Below are positions 30,650 through 36,420 of a DNA stretch of 36,420 bases, one piece after another (position 1 is the stretch's first letter; the number at the start of each line of letters is the position of its first letter). The notes beneath the pieces are model-generated. The model was not told the DNA's origin. It was given only the letters and a program-made list of their open reading frames with translations, and searched no databases. A program made the translations under genes and the position numbers. Source of the stretch: Betaproteobacteria bacterium (GTDB lineage Bacteria > Pseudomonadota > Gammaproteobacteria > Burkholderiales > SG8-39); the NCBI GenBank assembly GCA_016177575.1, contig JACOVA010000062.1:1-36420 (forward strand), in the 5' to 3' direction.

Positions 30650-33600
30650 CTACCCCACCCATCGGCGCGCATTGTAGAAGATCTGCATCCAGGGGGAATC
30701 CTCGCCCGCGCCGTCGGGCGCCCAGGACATCTGCACGGCGCGAAAGACGCGCTCCGGATGCGGCATCACGATCGTGAAGCGGCCGTCGGGCGTGGTCAGG
30801 CCCGTGATCCCCTGCGGCGAGCCGTTCGGGTTGCAGGGATGCCGTTCCGTCGCCCGGCCGCGGTTGTCCACGAACCTTAGTGCCACGATCGCCCGGTCGC
30901 GATCTTGATCCCGGTCAAACTCGGCGCGGCCTTCGCCGTGCGCCGTCGCGATCGGCATCCTGCTGCCCGCCATGCCCGCCAGCAGGATCGACGGGCTGTC
31001 GAGCACCTCGACCATCGCCAAGCGGGCCTCGAACTGCGCCGAGCGGTTGGCGCCGAACGCCGGCCAGTGCTCGGCGCCGGGAATGATTTCCTTCAGCGCC
31101 GCCATCATCTGGCAGCCGTTGCACGAGCCGAGCGCGAAAGTGTCGCGGCGCGCGAAGAAGGCCTCGAACTCCGCCCGCGCCCTGGAATTGAACAGGATCG
31201 ATTTCGCCCATCCCTGGCCGCCGCCGAGCACGTCGCCGTAGGAGAAGCCGCCGCAGGCGGCGAGGCCGGCGAAGCCCGTGAGCCTGGCGCGCCCGGCGAT
31301 GACGTCGGACATGTGCACGTCGACCGCCTCGAAGCCCGCGCGCGCGAACGCCGCCGCCATCTCGACCTGGCTGTTGACGCCCTGTTCCCTGAGTATTGCC
31401 ACGCGTGGAGGTTTTGTCTTTCCTATAGAAAATTCTTTGCTAGTAAAAGTCAATTGAAACGACAATCCCGGATCGGCAACGTCCAGTATCCGGTCGTATT
31501 CCTCCTGCGCGCAGTCCGGGTTGTCGCGCAGCTGCTGCATGCGGTAGCTGGTCTCCGACCAGGCGCGCTGCAGGTCGACGCGCTTCTCCTTCAGCAGCGG
31601 CCTGGCGGTGCGCGTGAACGATATCTCGTCGCGCGAATTCGTCGTTCCGATCACATGACAGATGGCGTCGAGGCCGCAAGAACGAAAGACGTCCATGACC
31701 CGTGTCCGGTCGGCCGCGCGGATCTGCAGCACCGCGCCCAGCTCCTCGGCGAACAGCGCCGCCAGCGCGCGCTCGCGCAGCCGTCCGGCGAGCTGCTCCT
31801 CGCTCGAGCGCCTGAAGCCGTCGACATCGTCGCTCCACTGGTCGAAGGTGAGCGCGTCCAGGCTGACCGTGACGCCGCAATGGCCGGCGAACGCCATCTC
31901 GCACACGGTGGCGAATAGCCCGCCATCGGAGCGGTCGTGGTAGGCAACAATCAGCTGCTGCGCATTCAGGGTTTGCATCGCCACGAAGAAGTTCTTGAAA
32001 ACGGGAGCGGAATCGAGATCCGGGCAGGAATTGCCGAACCTCGAATAGACCTGCGCCAGGATCGAGCCGCCGAGACGGTTCCTGCCCTGGCCGAGATCGA
32101 CGAGCAGCAGCTCGGTTTCGCCCGCGTCGGTGCGCAGCCGCGGCGTGAGCGTGGCGCGTGCGTCCTCGACTGCCGCGAAGGCGGTGACCACCAGCGACAG
32201 CGGCGCCACCACCTCCTTGTCCTCCCAGGCGGTGCGCATCGAGAGCGAATCCTTGCCCACCGGGATCGACACGCCGAGCGCCGGGCAGAGCTCGAGCGCC
32301 ACCGCGCGCACCGTGTCGTAGAGCGCCGCGTCCTCTCCCGGCGAGCCGGCGGCGGCCATCCAGTTGGCCGAGAGCTTGACGCGCTCGAGCGAGCGGACAT
32401 TGGCCGCGGCGAGGTTGGTGAGCACCTCCCCCACCGCCATGCGCCCGGAGGCCGGGCCGTCGATCAGCGCGAGCGGCGTGCGCTCGCCGATGGCGAACGC
32501 CTCCCCGGCATAGCCGGCGTAGTCGAGCAGCGTCACCGCGCAGTCGGCGACCGCCACCTGCCAGGGGCCGACCAGCGGGTCGCGCGCGCAAAGCCCGCCC
32601 ACCGTGCGGTCGCCGATCGTGACGAGGAAAGTCTTGTCCGCGACCGCGGGGTGGCGCAGCACGCGGTAGGCGGCCTCCTGCAGCTCGATGCCGTCGAGCG
32701 ACAGCAGCTCGAGCCCGGGCGCGGCGCGCCTGACGTCGCGCAGCATCCTGGGCGGCTTGCCCAGCACCACGTCGAGAGGAATGTCGATGGTGCGGTTCTC
32801 GAAGTGACTGTCTTCCACGCGCAGCAGGCGATCGGCGGTTGCGGTCCCGAGGACCGCGAAAGGACACCGTTCGCGCTCGCAGATGCGTCTGAACCGCTCC
32901 AGCCCCTCGGGCGCGATCGCTAGCACGTAGCGCTCCTGCGCTTCGTTGCACCAGATCTCGCGCGGCGACATGCCGCTGTCCTCGCATGGACCCGCGCGCA
33001 GCTCGAGCCGCGCGCCGCGGCGCGCCGCGTGCCCCATCTCCGGCAGGGCGTTCGACAGGCCGCCGGCGCCGACGTCGTGGATCGACAGCACCGGGTTGGC
33101 GGAGCCGAGCCCGGCGCAGCGGTCGATCACCTCCTGCGCGCGGCGCTGGATCTCGGCGTTACCGCGCTGCACCGAATCGAAATCGAGCTCGTCGGTATTG
33201 GCGCCGGCGCGCATCGAAGAGGCGGCGCCGCCGCCCATGCCGATCAGCAACCCGGGCCCGCCGAGCTGAACCAGGAGGGTCTGTTCCGAGAAATCCTTCT
33301 TCAGGCAATTCTCGGCGGCGACATTGCCGACGCCGCCCGCGAGCATGATCGGCTTGTGGTAGCCGCGCTGCACGCCGCCGACCGGCTGCTCGAAGGTCCT
33401 GAAGTAGCCCGCGAGGTTGGGCCGGCCGAACTCGTTGTTGAACGAAGCCGCGCCGATCGGGCCGTCGAGCATGATCTGCAGCGCCGACGCGATGCGCCCC
33501 GGGCGCCCGTAGTCGTGCGCTTCCCACGGCTGCTCCGCCCCGGGGATGCGCAGGCTCGACACCGTGTAGCCCACCAGTCCCGCCTTGGGCTTGGCGCCGC

Positions 33601-34549
33601 GCCCGGTCGCGCCCTCGTCGCGGATCTCGCCGCCGGCACCGGTCGCCGCGCCCGGGAAGGGACAGATCGCCGTGGGGTGGTTGTGCGTCTCGCACTTGGC
33701 GACGAAATGGGTGGTGCGGGGCCTTGCTCGGTAGACGTTGTCCTCGTCGGGGGAGAAGTTCTGAGAGGCAAAACCCTCGAGAACGGCGGCATTGTCCGCG
33801 TACGCGACCACGGTCCCCTGCGGGTTGGCGGCGTGGGTGGCGCGGATCATCGCGAACAGCGACTGGTCCTTGCGCTCGCCGTCGATGATCCAGTCGGCGT
33901 TGAAGATCTTGTGCCGGCAGTGCTCGGAGTTGGCCTGCGCGAACATGGTCAGCTCGGCGTCGGTCGGGTCGCGGCCGAGCGCCTGATAGGCCTGGCGCAG
34001 GTAGGCGATCTCGTCCTCGCTCAGCGCCAGCCCCAGGCGCAGATTCGCTTCCTCCAGCCGCGCGAGCGCCACCCGGCCGAGCGGCCGCGGTGCGACGTGC
34101 CGGAACAGCCCTTCGGCCTCTTCGAGCGCGCCGAGGACGCTTTCGGTCATTCGATCGTGCAGCAGCGGCGCGATGTGCGCCTGGTCCGCCTTCGTTTGCG
34201 ACCGCACGAAATACGCGATTCCGCGCTCGATGCGCCGGACCCCCTCGAGCCCGCAGTTGCGCGCGATGTCGGTCGCCTTGGACGACCAGGAGGAGAGGGT
34301 GCCGAGCCGCGGCACGACGAGGAATAGCGTGCCTGCGGGCTGCCCGTCCTCGACGGGCGCTCCGTAACGCAGCAGGCGCTCGAGCAGCCGGCGCTCGCCG
34401 GCGCCGGGCTCGGCGTCTGCCTCGACGAAATGCCAGAACTCGGCCGCCAGGCCGCGCGTGCCCGGGGCGATCTGCTTGATGCGGGAAAGAAGCCTGGCGA
34501 GCCGGAAATCCGACAGCGCGCGCGCGCCGCGCAGCTTCAGGACAGTCAC
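30650..34549 (-). CDS. purL: Phosphoribosylformylglycinamidine synthase, single-chain PurL
   Basis: This is the large bacterial FGAM synthase of purine synthesis: one 1299-residue chain (E. coli 1295) with the N-terminal PurS-like domain, two AIRS-like ATPase domains, and a C-terminal glutaminase. The N-terminus reads [13 protein letters not shown]. The ATPase part contains [12 protein letters not shown] and [18 protein letters not shown]. In the glutaminase the nucleophile is Cys1143 in [10 protein letters not shown], and the His-Glu pair lies in MPHPERVFR. The GTG start at 34549 overlaps the upstream gene (GTGA). AT-rich, rare-codon DNA is seen near 31403-31460, at the junction into the glutaminase domain. 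Confidence 0.97.
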
Positions 34550-36420
34550 TTGCGGATCACGGGGTCCTGCAGCTTGCCGGAGATGTTGAGCACCGCGCGC
34601 AAGGTCTGGTTGGGCGTTTTCACGTCCGCGGCGATCCGCCCCAGCAGCGCGCCGCTGGCGTCGATGTCGAGGCTGGCGCCCGCGCTCATGGCGCCGGCCG
34701 TGATCGCGATGTTGCGCAGCTGCACGCTGCCCCTTTCGTACACGCCCTGCCCCGTGAGCTCGGCGAACTCGGTGCGGCCGCCGGTTTGCGCGCCGCCGGT
34801 CTCCAGCGCGCGCCGCAGATTGAAATTGCCGATCACGCCGTTGTCGATCTTGAAGCTGCCGTCCAGCCGCGCCCGCTCGTAGAGCTTGGCCGGATCCGGC
34901 CCGCTCATCGTGTACTTGCCGTTGGCCTCGACCTTGCCCTCGGACACCAGAGTCGGCGCGAACACGGCGACCTTGACGCCGCGCGCGCGCAGCTCGCCTT
35001 CGGCGCTCCAGGTCGCGCCCCAGCCGATGCGCGCCTTGCCGCTGATCACGCCGTCGAAGGCGCGGCCGTCGAAGTCCGACGCGCTCACGCCCTGGCGCGT
35101 CGCGGTCCCCTTCATGCCGAACTCCGACAGCGAGAACGCGGGCGCGAACGGCAGCGCCAGGCTCGCGGCGCTGATCTCGAACTCGAGCTCGTTGCCCTTC
35201 GGCGCCAGCCGCACCGCGAGCTTGTCCGGGCCGCTCAGCGCGATCGACTGCAGCGTGCCGTCGCCCGCCACCTTGGCGTCGATGTCGAGCGCCGGCAGCG
35301 CCAGCGGGCCGTCGAACTTCGCCTGCTTCATGACGATGCGCCCGACGCGGAAATTCTCGCTGCCGACCTTGCCGAATGCCGCCTCGCCGAGCTGCGCCTG
35401 CGACGCCGACGCGCCCTCCAGCTCGATGCGGCTGAAGACCTTTTTCGCACCGAACAGCGAGCCGATCTCGGGCGAGCCGCGCACCAGCCTGACCTTGACC
35501 GCGTCGCCGATCGACACGCCCTCGAGCCTGACCTCGACGCTCGTGAGCGCCGAGAGCCGAGCCGAGGAGATCTTCACCGGCACGCCCAGCGCTTCCGAGG
35601 CGGCCTTCTCGTATTCGGCGGTGGACACCGGCATGACGTTCAGCGCCCCGACCCCGCCGATCAGGATCACGAACAGCGCGACCGCGGCGGGCTTGCCCCA
35701 GTTGACCGGGCGGCGCACCTTGGCCGCGACGACGGGCTCCATGCGCTCGGCTTCGCGCCTGCGCGCTTCCTTCGACAGCGCCTTTTCGTCGCGCTTGACG
35801 TCGTCCATGTCGAGGTCCTCGTCCGTGACCCCGACGTCGTCGTCGCCCTTGGCCGCGCTGCGCGCGGATGCGGCGCTCCTGGCGGCTTTTTCCTCGGCTT
35901 CCTTGGCGGCGAGCGCCTCCTTGGCCTCGCGCTTGCGCTCGGTTTCCGCCTGCTTGCGCTCTTCCTCCTCCTCGCGCTCGCGGCGCTCCTCCTCCTCGCG
36001 CGCGCGCCGCTCGGCCTCGGCTTCGGCCTTGGCGTTGCGCTCCTCCTCCTCCTCGCGGCGCCGCCGGTCCTCTTCCTCGCGCCTGCGCCGCTCCTCCTCC
36101 TCGCGCGCGCGCCGCGCCGCCGCCTCCTTCTCCTTGCGCTCGGCCTCCTCCTTGGCCTTGCGCTCCTCCTCGTCCCGCTGCGAGAAGGAATCCAGGTCCG
36201 CGAGCAGCGAATCGCCCAGGCCGGCAAGCGGATCGGCCGCGGCGGGCTGCGCGGGCGCAGGTATCGCGGGCTGCGCAGACGAGCGGGCCGCCGCCTCCGC
36301 GGCACTCGCCTTGGCCTCGGCTTCCTCCCCCGCTCTGCGCTCGGTCTCCTCACGCCGCCTGCGGTCGTCCTCCTCGCGGCGCTTGCGATCATCCTCGTCG
36401 CGACGCTTGCGATCCTGCTC
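34546..36420 (-). CDS. AsmA-like membrane protein with long charged helix (partial, N-terminus beyond window)
   Basis: The frame is open to the right edge of the window, giving 624 residues with the true start outside. The first part is low-complexity and strongly charged (Glu, Arg, Lys, Asp), interrupted by an Ala/Pro stretch around [19 protein letters not shown]. It continues with runs of EEERRRR and EEEEER type consistent with a coiled coil or single alpha helix. A single membrane helix follows ([16 protein letters not shown], about 35649-35699). The C-terminal part resembles AsmA/DUF748-like beta-rich proteins linked to envelope lipid traffic. It ends in GTGA overlap with purL. A shorter internal ATG at 35808 is not the natural start. 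Function unknown. Confidence 0.7.

What the first reader, a model, noticed from the sequence alone, without database searches (positions are those of the whole stretch)
34546..36420. Long Glu/Arg/Lys helix attached to a membrane helix and AsmA-like domain
At least 150 residues upstream of the membrane helix are dominated by E/R/K/D blocks with local repeats of the RKRR-EDDR type, the pattern of a stable single alpha helix or coiled coil. It would lie in the cytoplasm, with the AsmA-like part in the periplasm. This layout could bridge the membrane to a cytoplasmic partner. The N-terminal end lies outside the window.
Basis: partly seen in the sequence, partly recalled or inferred. Interest (0 to 1): 0.5.

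Follow-up and report, generated by a model that had tools for sequence, protein, structure and literature searches.

The report
Envelope protein on a cytoplasmic leash
The window ends inside a gene for an inner-membrane protein that joins a periplasmic domain of a lipid-transport-related family to a very long charged helix reaching into the cell, and relatives show that this helix carries a conserved regulatory-looking domain at its far tip, an arrangement for which we found no description.

Summary
The ORF (34546..36420, minus strand) is cut by the contig end; 244 residues precede the membrane helix, 59% E/D/K/R, with charges repeating every ~8 residues and opposite charges four apart far above shuffles (z 6.7 and 6.6). 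That is the single-alpha-helix (ER/K) signature, not a heptad coiled coil. The helix is broken once by a Pro/Ala-rich stretch and a conserved island (LLADLDSF). Related genomes show what should lie beyond the contig end: a ~75-residue winged-helix domain, usually an acidic LDFT motif, a spacer of mostly 279-1200 residues, one membrane helix (N-terminus inside) and a ~360-residue AsmA-type domain. Spacer charge pattern is conserved and under purifying selection; its length is not. In some lineages the spacer is a short linker, in one family largely a class III nucleotide-cyclase domain. The purL linkage was seen only in the window's own family. The winged-helix module also occurs fused to response-regulator receivers. 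Most likely this is a transmembrane leash linking a cytoplasmic recognition or signalling domain to an AsmA-like envelope domain. The anatomy is well supported; ligand, partner and lipid transport are not shown. New variant of a known kind (AsmA-like proteins).

The parts
34546..36420 (-). 5'-truncated ORF, 624 aa held: charged spacer, membrane helix, AsmA-like domain
   Evidence: contig ends at 36420
36283..36420 (-). ER/K run 1 (residues 1-46), 72% charged, 24-bp (8-codon) repeats
36220..36282 (-). Pro/Ala-rich break in the helix (residues 47-67)
36184..36219 (-). [12 protein letters not shown] island; LLADLDSF-like in 24 of 36 purL-linked members (window included)
35851..36183 (-). ER/K run 2 (residues 80-190), 70% charged, 1 of 111 hydrophobic
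35794..35850 (-). acidic island [19 protein letters not shown]; similar pattern in 16 of 36 purL-linked members (window included)
35689..35721 (-). basic stretch [11 protein letters not shown] before the membrane helix (inside signal)
35626..35688 (-). single transmembrane helix (residues 245-265)
34549..35625 (-). AsmA-like domain, predicted periplasmic, ~360 residues, mostly beta strands
34546..34549 (-). GTGA overlap of this ORF's stop codon with the purL start
30650..34549 (-). purL, next gene downstream

Best explanation
An inner-membrane leash protein. SHOWN by sequence (in relatives; the window holds only the part from the spacer on): a winged-helix domain, usually an acidic LDFT motif, a long ER/K-patterned spacer, one membrane helix and a short AsmA-type domain. 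INFERRED: the winged helix and spacer lie in the cytoplasm and the AsmA part in the periplasm; the spacer behaves largely as single alpha helices (about 0.15 nm per residue, so the longest Pro-free charged run of each member of the window's family, 126-576 residues, would be about 19-86 nm); the winged-helix/LDFT end binds a cytoplasmic partner, perhaps a protein or peptide rather than DNA; and the leash places or tunes the AsmA part, which would handle lipids at the membrane's periplasmic face. The spacer's exact length seems not critical, its charge pattern does.
For: Architecture: the winged helix was found in 77 of 104 ORFs compared, in the window's family in 25 of 36, the other 11 being cut by contig ends (9) or containing runs of unknown letters (2). 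LDF[T/S] lies within 42 residues of it in 52 of 77, including 25 of 25 purL-linked ones; in the 66 long non-cyclase spacers 52 against 0.16 in shuffles. Spacer: charge period 7.6-8.6 residues in 68 of 82 spacers of ER/K make-up; i+4 opposite-charge z 5.5-26.8 in the 66 long non-cyclase spacers. Selection: in 11 pairs with ER/K-type spacers dN/dS of the spacer is 0.08-0.25 where defined (10 of 11), below the AsmA core's in 9 of 10; 34 charge-flip substitutions against 198 expected if charged differences were dealt out at random. Topology: N-in by K/R count in 82 of 88, mean net flank charge +3.9 against +0.4. AsmA: Pfam PF05170 above its 29.8-bit cut-off in relatives L064 32.7, L066 37.5, L067 61.5, L184 35.2, L196 37.5. 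Model of the window's core: pLDDT 83, helix then repeated strands; among its matches ApoB-100 (Z 11.4 but rmsd 12.1), TamB (Z 6.9, rmsd 4.1, 153 aligned) and the Atg2 N-terminal domain (Z 6.4, rmsd 4.2, 110 aligned). Signalling: the same module is fused to receiver domains, and a nucleotide-cyclase domain takes most of the spacer in one family.
Against: The window's own protein lacks its first part. No structure of the spacer was predicted; Ala-rich stretches can make helices associate (PMC5347031, passages). Pairwise alignment of repeats favours matching charges, which may flatter the charge-flip count. Most of the AsmA model's Z values are in the range that the tool calls common, beta barrels rank above TamB, and Foldseek gives nothing at E<=0.001. 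The window's own core gives only DUF748 at 17.8 bits against a cut-off of 50; five of eight relatives scanned also miss the AsmA cut-off. The winged-helix profile's best match is a DNA-binding regulator, PH0140 (E 8.5e-6 whole sequence, 4e-4 best stretch), before PqqD (1.8e-4), so DNA binding is open. No gene neighbour common to the different families points to a partner.
Confidence: 0.5

Rival explanations
1. The spacer is an oligomeric coiled coil or Ala-zipper stalk, so the protein works as a membrane-anchored dimer or trimer, not a monomeric leash.
For: Ala is 8-37% in the 66 long non-cyclase spacers, 20% or more in many, and Ala seams promote helix association (PMC5347031, passages); some spacers outside the family have hydrophobic peaks near 3.5-3.6 residues, such as L169 and L174.
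Against: Hydrophobics are 4-15% in the window's family and the charge period is about 8, which leaves no straight 7-residue seam (geometry, own reasoning); 68 of 82 spacers peak at 7.6-8.6, 4 at 7.2-7.4, 10 elsewhere.
Confidence: 0.2
2. A membrane-tethered DNA-binding regulator (like ToxR or CadC in principle, recalled): the winged helix binds DNA and the AsmA-like part senses the envelope.
For: Best profile match of the winged helix in the PDB is PH0140, an HTH-type regulator (E 8.5e-6; Lrp/AsnC class recalled); HTH_47 hits 13 of 37 members and HTH_24 and MarR models fewer.
Against: No single HTH family covers most members; for the one member shown in full all matches are below cut-off, the others' scores are not shown. 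The same module is fused to receivers, and in the two scanned Pfam shows no separate DNA-binding domain. PqqD and RRE folds also match.
Confidence: 0.2
3. A passive, drifting low-complexity linker made by repeat slippage, with no function beyond joining two parts.
For: Length varies from 58 to 1200 residues; L189 (58) sits beside L186 (732) in the quick tree; 24-bp repeats, 3.7 exact copies in L080.
Against: Spacer dN/dS 0.08-0.25 in 10 pairs; charge flips 34 against 198 expected although E<->K is one transition; charge period kept across families.
Confidence: 0.1
4. A TolA homologue with a periplasmic helix.
For: NCBIfam TolA model scores 39.9-44.9 bits in three of six proteins scanned (five full-length relatives and one short paralogue).
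Against: Below the 59.45 cut-off; the helix lies before, not after, the membrane segment; flank charges say N-in.
Confidence: 0.02
5. The rod is a localisation device: a long stiff cytoplasmic helix is kept out of nucleoid-occupied space and so gathers the AsmA part at poles or gaps.
For: E. coli AsmA-superfamily transporters YhdP, TamB and YdbH are polar and the molecular basis is not known (PMC12977461, abstract and section 7).
Against: No direct evidence here; those E. coli proteins do not have such a rod (recalled).
Confidence: 0.08

Closest known systems
AsmA-like proteins (AsmA, TamB, YhdP, YdbH; Pfam AsmA PF05170, DUF748, YhdP)
   Same: One N-in membrane helix followed by a beta-rich domain; several relatives pass Pfam AsmA's cut-off
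   Different: The part after the membrane helix is only ~360 residues; hundreds of predicted cytoplasmic residues with their own domain precede the membrane helix, whereas AsmA-like proteins are described as N-terminal membrane helix plus large periplasmic domain (PMC10900882, passages)
Eukaryotic ER/K single alpha helices, e.g. INCENP 'dog leash' (PMC4571873, abstract and passages)
   Same: E/R/K-rich, few hydrophobics, opposite charges 3-4 apart, joins two functional ends; INCENP's is 213 residues (~32 nm)
   Different: Bacterial, membrane-anchored, total spacer often longer; helicity not measured
Winged helices of the PqqD / RiPP-recognition and HTH-regulator kinds
   Same: Winged-helix fold by profile and model
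   Different: PqqD equivalog cut-off not met; subfamily undecided
TolA
   Same: Similar Ala/Lys/Glu helix composition
   Different: Order of parts is reversed and, by flank charge, so is the side of the membrane; cut-off not met
GspN of type II secretion
   Same: Weak match of the C-terminal part in L071 and L067, 25.6-27.8 bits
   Different: Cut-off 50 not met; neighbours were not annotated for secretion genes

Membership tests
AsmA-like | Pfam PF05170 above gathering score (relatives) | tested here: met
   L064, L066, L067 (3 of 8) and L184, L196 (2 of 4) at 32.7-61.5 bits against 29.8; not L080, L096, L069, L070, L071, nor L192 (29.6) and L187 (24.6)
AsmA-like | Pfam match above gathering score (window protein itself) | tested here: not met
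   624 aa: none at E<=1; core alone: DUF748 17.8 bits against 50. The link is through the relatives' alignment
AsmA-like | Membrane helix then beta-rich groove | tested here: inconclusive
   Model with helix 2-17 (pLDDT under 50) and repeated strands; TamB and Atg2 among matches but Z below 8, barrels above them
AsmA-like | Phospholipid transport | not testable with these tools
   Needs biochemistry and genetics
Single alpha helix (ER/K) | E/R/K-rich, few hydrophobics, opposite charges 3-4 apart | tested here: met
   criteria from PMC5347031 passages
Single alpha helix (ER/K) | Monomeric stable helix in solution | not testable with these tools
   Needs CD, AUC, SAXS
TolA | NCBIfam TolA cut-off (relatives) | tested here: not met
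   best 44.9 bits against 59.45
TolA | Helix on the periplasmic side, after the membrane segment | tested here: not met
   Helix precedes it; N-in by K/R count in 82 of 88
PqqD | NCBIfam PqqD cut-off (relatives' N-terminal domain) | tested here: not met
   6 of 37 hit at E<=0.05, best E 0.00098; the one member shown in full scores 14.3 bits against 46
DNA-binding winged helix | Profile and fold match | tested here: inconclusive
Class III nucleotide cyclase (family f37 only) | Pfam Guanylate_cyc cut-off | tested here: met
   3 of 4 scanned above 21.9 bits, the fourth 21.4; L194 was not scanned

The most novel reading that the evidence does not exclude
A family of cytoplasm-to-envelope signalling proteins of the window's order (beta-proteobacterial bins by record titles) in which a winged-helix recognition module, through an exchangeable cytoplasmic element (ER/K leash, short linker or nucleotide-cyclase domain), controls or positions an AsmA-type lipid-handling domain on the other side of the inner membrane: a direct link from cytoplasmic state to outer-membrane lipid supply.
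Probability: 0.25. Interest if true: 0.75.

Novelty: new variant of a known kind. Interest (0 to 1): 0.55.

Why it matters
How phospholipid flow to the outer membrane is regulated and placed in the cell is open: the basis of the polar placement of YhdP, TamB and YdbH is not known (PMC12977461, section 7). A common AsmA-type protein that carries its own cytoplasmic recognition domain, and in one family a cyclase, gives that question a concrete handle. It would also be a large natural set of membrane-anchored bacterial ER/K helices, useful for studying how stiff single helices evolve in length.

Tried and rejected
TolA: rejected (cut-off, order of parts, topology). Purine metabolism: purL was found in 26 of 26 loci of the window's family in the neighbour comparison (next gene in 24 and second in 1 of the 25 whose order could be read) and in none of the 67 other loci there, whose flanks are up to about 10 kb and often shorter; so the linkage is more likely local history than a clue to function. 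Other recurrent neighbours are mostly confined to related lineages; they were grouped by similarity, not annotated. Internal start: an ATG at 35808 would give a 420-aa protein like the short paralogues; that residue is Met in 6, Leu in 7 and Phe in 3 of the 16 islands found, so it is not a conserved start, but it is not excluded for the window itself. Recent slippage only: 24-bp repeats exist but do not explain selection on charge. Fold search of the core in the PDB by Foldseek gave nothing at E<=0.001. First reading of the winged helix as PqqD-like weakened with a wider profile. Class-wide sample: 7 of 114 genomes match at E<=1e-15, one of them the window's own and one of the same order; the five others have frames of 493-893 aa and were not fetched. 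Paper searches for this architecture: searches listed nothing on it (listings only); the library holds open-licence papers. PMC5812594 returned no passages. The careful tree did not finish; the quick one is used, with 100 of 104 cores: L092, L088 and L197 dropped for unknown letters (L197 also short), L198 as probably spurious. Of the places, 40 were fetched with wide flanks; fragments such as those of G001, G002, G006, G010 and G033, and G007, G021 and G036, were not. Of, the frames under 560 aa were not fetched except six with 460-530 aa and one (G221, 513 aa). The 82 spacers include 12 cut by contig ends and 5 without a detected winged helix whose start is read from the previous stop or holds unknown letters. 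A Pfam call with wrong coordinates (76) was repeated with right ones (80); a script that stopped (77) was finished.

Full report
What is there. The window is a whole contig (G000:C6), and the finding is the 3' part of a gene on the minus strand, cut by the contig end. 624 residues are held. The stop codon overlaps the purL start (34546..34549, GTGA); purL is confirmed by Pfam.

The charged region. 244 residues lie before the membrane helix, 59% of them E, D, K or R. Charge alternates with a period of about 8: autocorrelation -0.49 at lag 4 and +0.42 at lag 8, and i+4 opposite-charge pairs at about twice the shuffled number in both directions. The runs at residues 1-46 and 80-190 hold 1 hydrophobic residue in 157. 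At DNA level this appears as diverged 24-bp repeats. Published criteria for single alpha helices are E/K/R richness, no hydrophobic seam and E-K or E-R pairs three to four apart (PMC5347031, passages). These are met by sequence. The region is not one helix: a Pro/Ala-rich stretch and an [12 protein letters not shown] island, found in similar form in 24 of 36 members of the window's family, interrupt it.

The full gene. In 61 genomes (own and relatives) 45 have a match to the membrane helix plus C-terminal domain, some of them fragments. Full-length relatives begin with a conserved ~75-residue domain. Its alignment and model (mean pLDDT 67.5 over 110 residues, 79-83 in residues 21-70) show a winged helix; structural matches are winged helices of several kinds, including GATOR1 subunits, an RNA polymerase III domain, RiPP-recognition domains and HTH regulators. 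A wider profile of 37 sequences matches the regulator PH0140 best (E 8.5e-6; best stretch 4e-4) and PqqD next (1.8e-4). Members scanned one by one hit scattered HTH families; the one shown in full reaches no cut-off. The domain is followed within 42 residues by an acidic LDF[T/S] motif in 52 of the 77 ORFs in which it was found, in all 25 such ORFs of the window's family, in none of the 6 with a short spacer and none of the 5 with a cyclase; in the 66 others shuffles give 0.16. Three further relatives (L072, L165, L168) missed by the profile show the motif and a divergent domain by eye. The own genome, 64% complete, gave no match to the domain, so for the window itself its presence is inferred.

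Spread and variants. In a sample of 200 genomes of the order, 91 have the core at E<=1e-12; 67 of these have a frame of 560 aa or more, 42 one of 400-559 aa, 18 both. Spacers were measured from the winged helix to the membrane helix in 77 ORFs, not all of them independent. They fall into three kinds. Long: 66 ORFs, 279-1200 residues, 37-71% charged except L169 with 29%, i+4 z of 5.5 to 26.8. Short: 6 ORFs, 58-131 residues, z at most 2.1; five are 16-26% Pro+Gly, L189 is not. Cyclase: in family f37 five ORFs of 278-293 residues in which most of the spacer is a class III nucleotide-cyclase domain, above Pfam's cut-off in 3 of 4 scanned. By eye the cyclase keeps the two Asp and the Asn/Arg positions known for this class (recalled motif, not tested). 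In 82 spacers of ER/K make-up (cut-offs: at least 130 residues, 35% charged, at most 20% hydrophobic; 12 cut by contig ends, 5 without a detected winged helix) the charge period lies at 7.6-8.6 in 68, 7.2-7.4 in 4 and elsewhere in 10. The longest Pro-free run with at least 40% charge in each window of 20 has a median of 238 residues (35-576) in 71 ORFs with spacers of 250 or more.

Selection. Eleven pairs of related genes with ER/K-type spacers and one pair with the cyclase were aligned and counted by codons. In the ER/K pairs the spacer's dN/dS is 0.08-0.25 in the 10 with a value and below the core's in 9 of 10; the exception is L162/L164 (0.155 against 0.112). Some pairs share a member, and synonymous sites are near saturation in several. 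Substitutions that keep charge total 374 and those that flip it 34, against 198 flips if the differing charged residues are dealt out at random within each pair; alignment of repeats can flatter this. So the spacer is coding and its charge pattern is kept, while its length drifts. In the quick tree of 100 cores the cyclase group is one side of a branch, and L189 (58-residue spacer) is placed beside L186 (732).

Topology. More K/R on the N-terminal flank of the membrane helix in 82 of 88 ORFs, mean net charge +3.9 against +0.4 on the other flank; a second strong hydrophobic segment upstream in 3 of 88 and downstream in 2. This puts winged helix and spacer in the cytoplasm and the C-terminal domain in the periplasm, by inference.

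The C-terminal domain. 27 sequences, window included, align over its length. Pfam's AsmA model passes its cut-off in 3 of 8 and 2 of 4 relatives scanned, not in the window's own sequence. The model of the window's core (pLDDT 83, pTM 0.71) is a helix followed by repeated strands. Foldseek finds nothing at E<=0.001. The second aligner puts a piece of ApoB-100 first (Z 11.4, rmsd 12.1), then many barrels; TamB (Z 6.9, rmsd 4.1) and the PE-bound Atg2 domain (Z 6.4, rmsd 4.2, model residues 23-155) are at ranks 45 and 50. These are suggestive only. At ~360 residues the domain is probably too short to span the periplasm alone; the small AsmA-like protein PA2708 of P. aeruginosa was judged so (PMC10900882, passages).

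The module elsewhere. The winged helix also occurs in other proteins of the same bacteria. Of 18 further places fetched, all 18 gave a hit: two were scanned and carry a response-regulator receiver above cut-off (L107, L114), seven more show a receiver by eye (L105, L106, L108, L109, L110, L115, L119), eight are small proteins, and one is the short-linker AsmA protein L112. Four of the nine receiver proteins (L107, L108, L114, L119) carry an LDF[S/T] motif by eye. This is why a recognition or signalling role is preferred to a plain anchor.

Genome context. purL follows in the window's family and was not found in the other loci compared. Other recurrent neighbours are mostly confined to related lineages. 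No partner emerges.

Mechanism. Shown: order of parts, conservation of both ends, charge pattern, selection. Inferred: membrane sides, helix state, leash role. Not shown: ligand, partner, lipid handling. The INCENP helix is a working analogue: 213 residues proposed to act as a flexible leash between two functional ends (PMC4571873, passages). A DNA-binding role is possible; the charged CAF-1 helix, titled a DNA-binding domain (PMC10335832, listing), is a reminder that such helices can bind too, but net charge per residue of the spacers here is mostly near zero or slightly negative.

Verdict. A real and, within the order sampled, common architecture for which the searched open library gave no description (listings only); a new variant of AsmA-like proteins. 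Interest 0.55.

Noticed in passing
L184, L187, L192, L194, L196 (family f37): Winged helix, class III nucleotide-cyclase domain, short EAKA helix, membrane helix and AsmA-like domain in one protein.
   Followed up: partly
L105-L110, L114, L115, L119: The same winged-helix module at the N-terminus of nine proteins that end in a receiver (REC) domain; two (L107, L114) were scanned by Pfam, four (L107, L108, L114, L119) show an LDF[S/T] motif by eye.
   Followed up: partly
L102-L104, L111, L113, L116-L118: Eight small proteins (open frames 175-233 aa) with the same N-terminal module and an unassigned C-terminal part; two were scanned by Pfam without an assignment.
   Followed up: partly
L067, L065 and other 400-560 aa frames: Short paralogues: membrane helix plus AsmA-like domain with little or no cytoplasmic part; 18 of 91 genomes have both a short and a long frame.
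   Followed up: partly
L080:9239-9327: 3.7 exact copies of a 24-bp unit in the spacer gene: recent in-frame growth by one 8-residue ER/K unit.
   Followed up: no
L112, L193, L195, L199, L201: Winged helix joined to the membrane helix by a linker of 89-131 residues without the ER/K pattern, 16-26% Pro+Gly.
   Followed up: partly
L097 record title: A metagenome bin is titled Bordetella parapertussis although its contig is the same as that of G032 (L050), whose gene lies within the window's family; probably a labelling matter.
   Followed up: no
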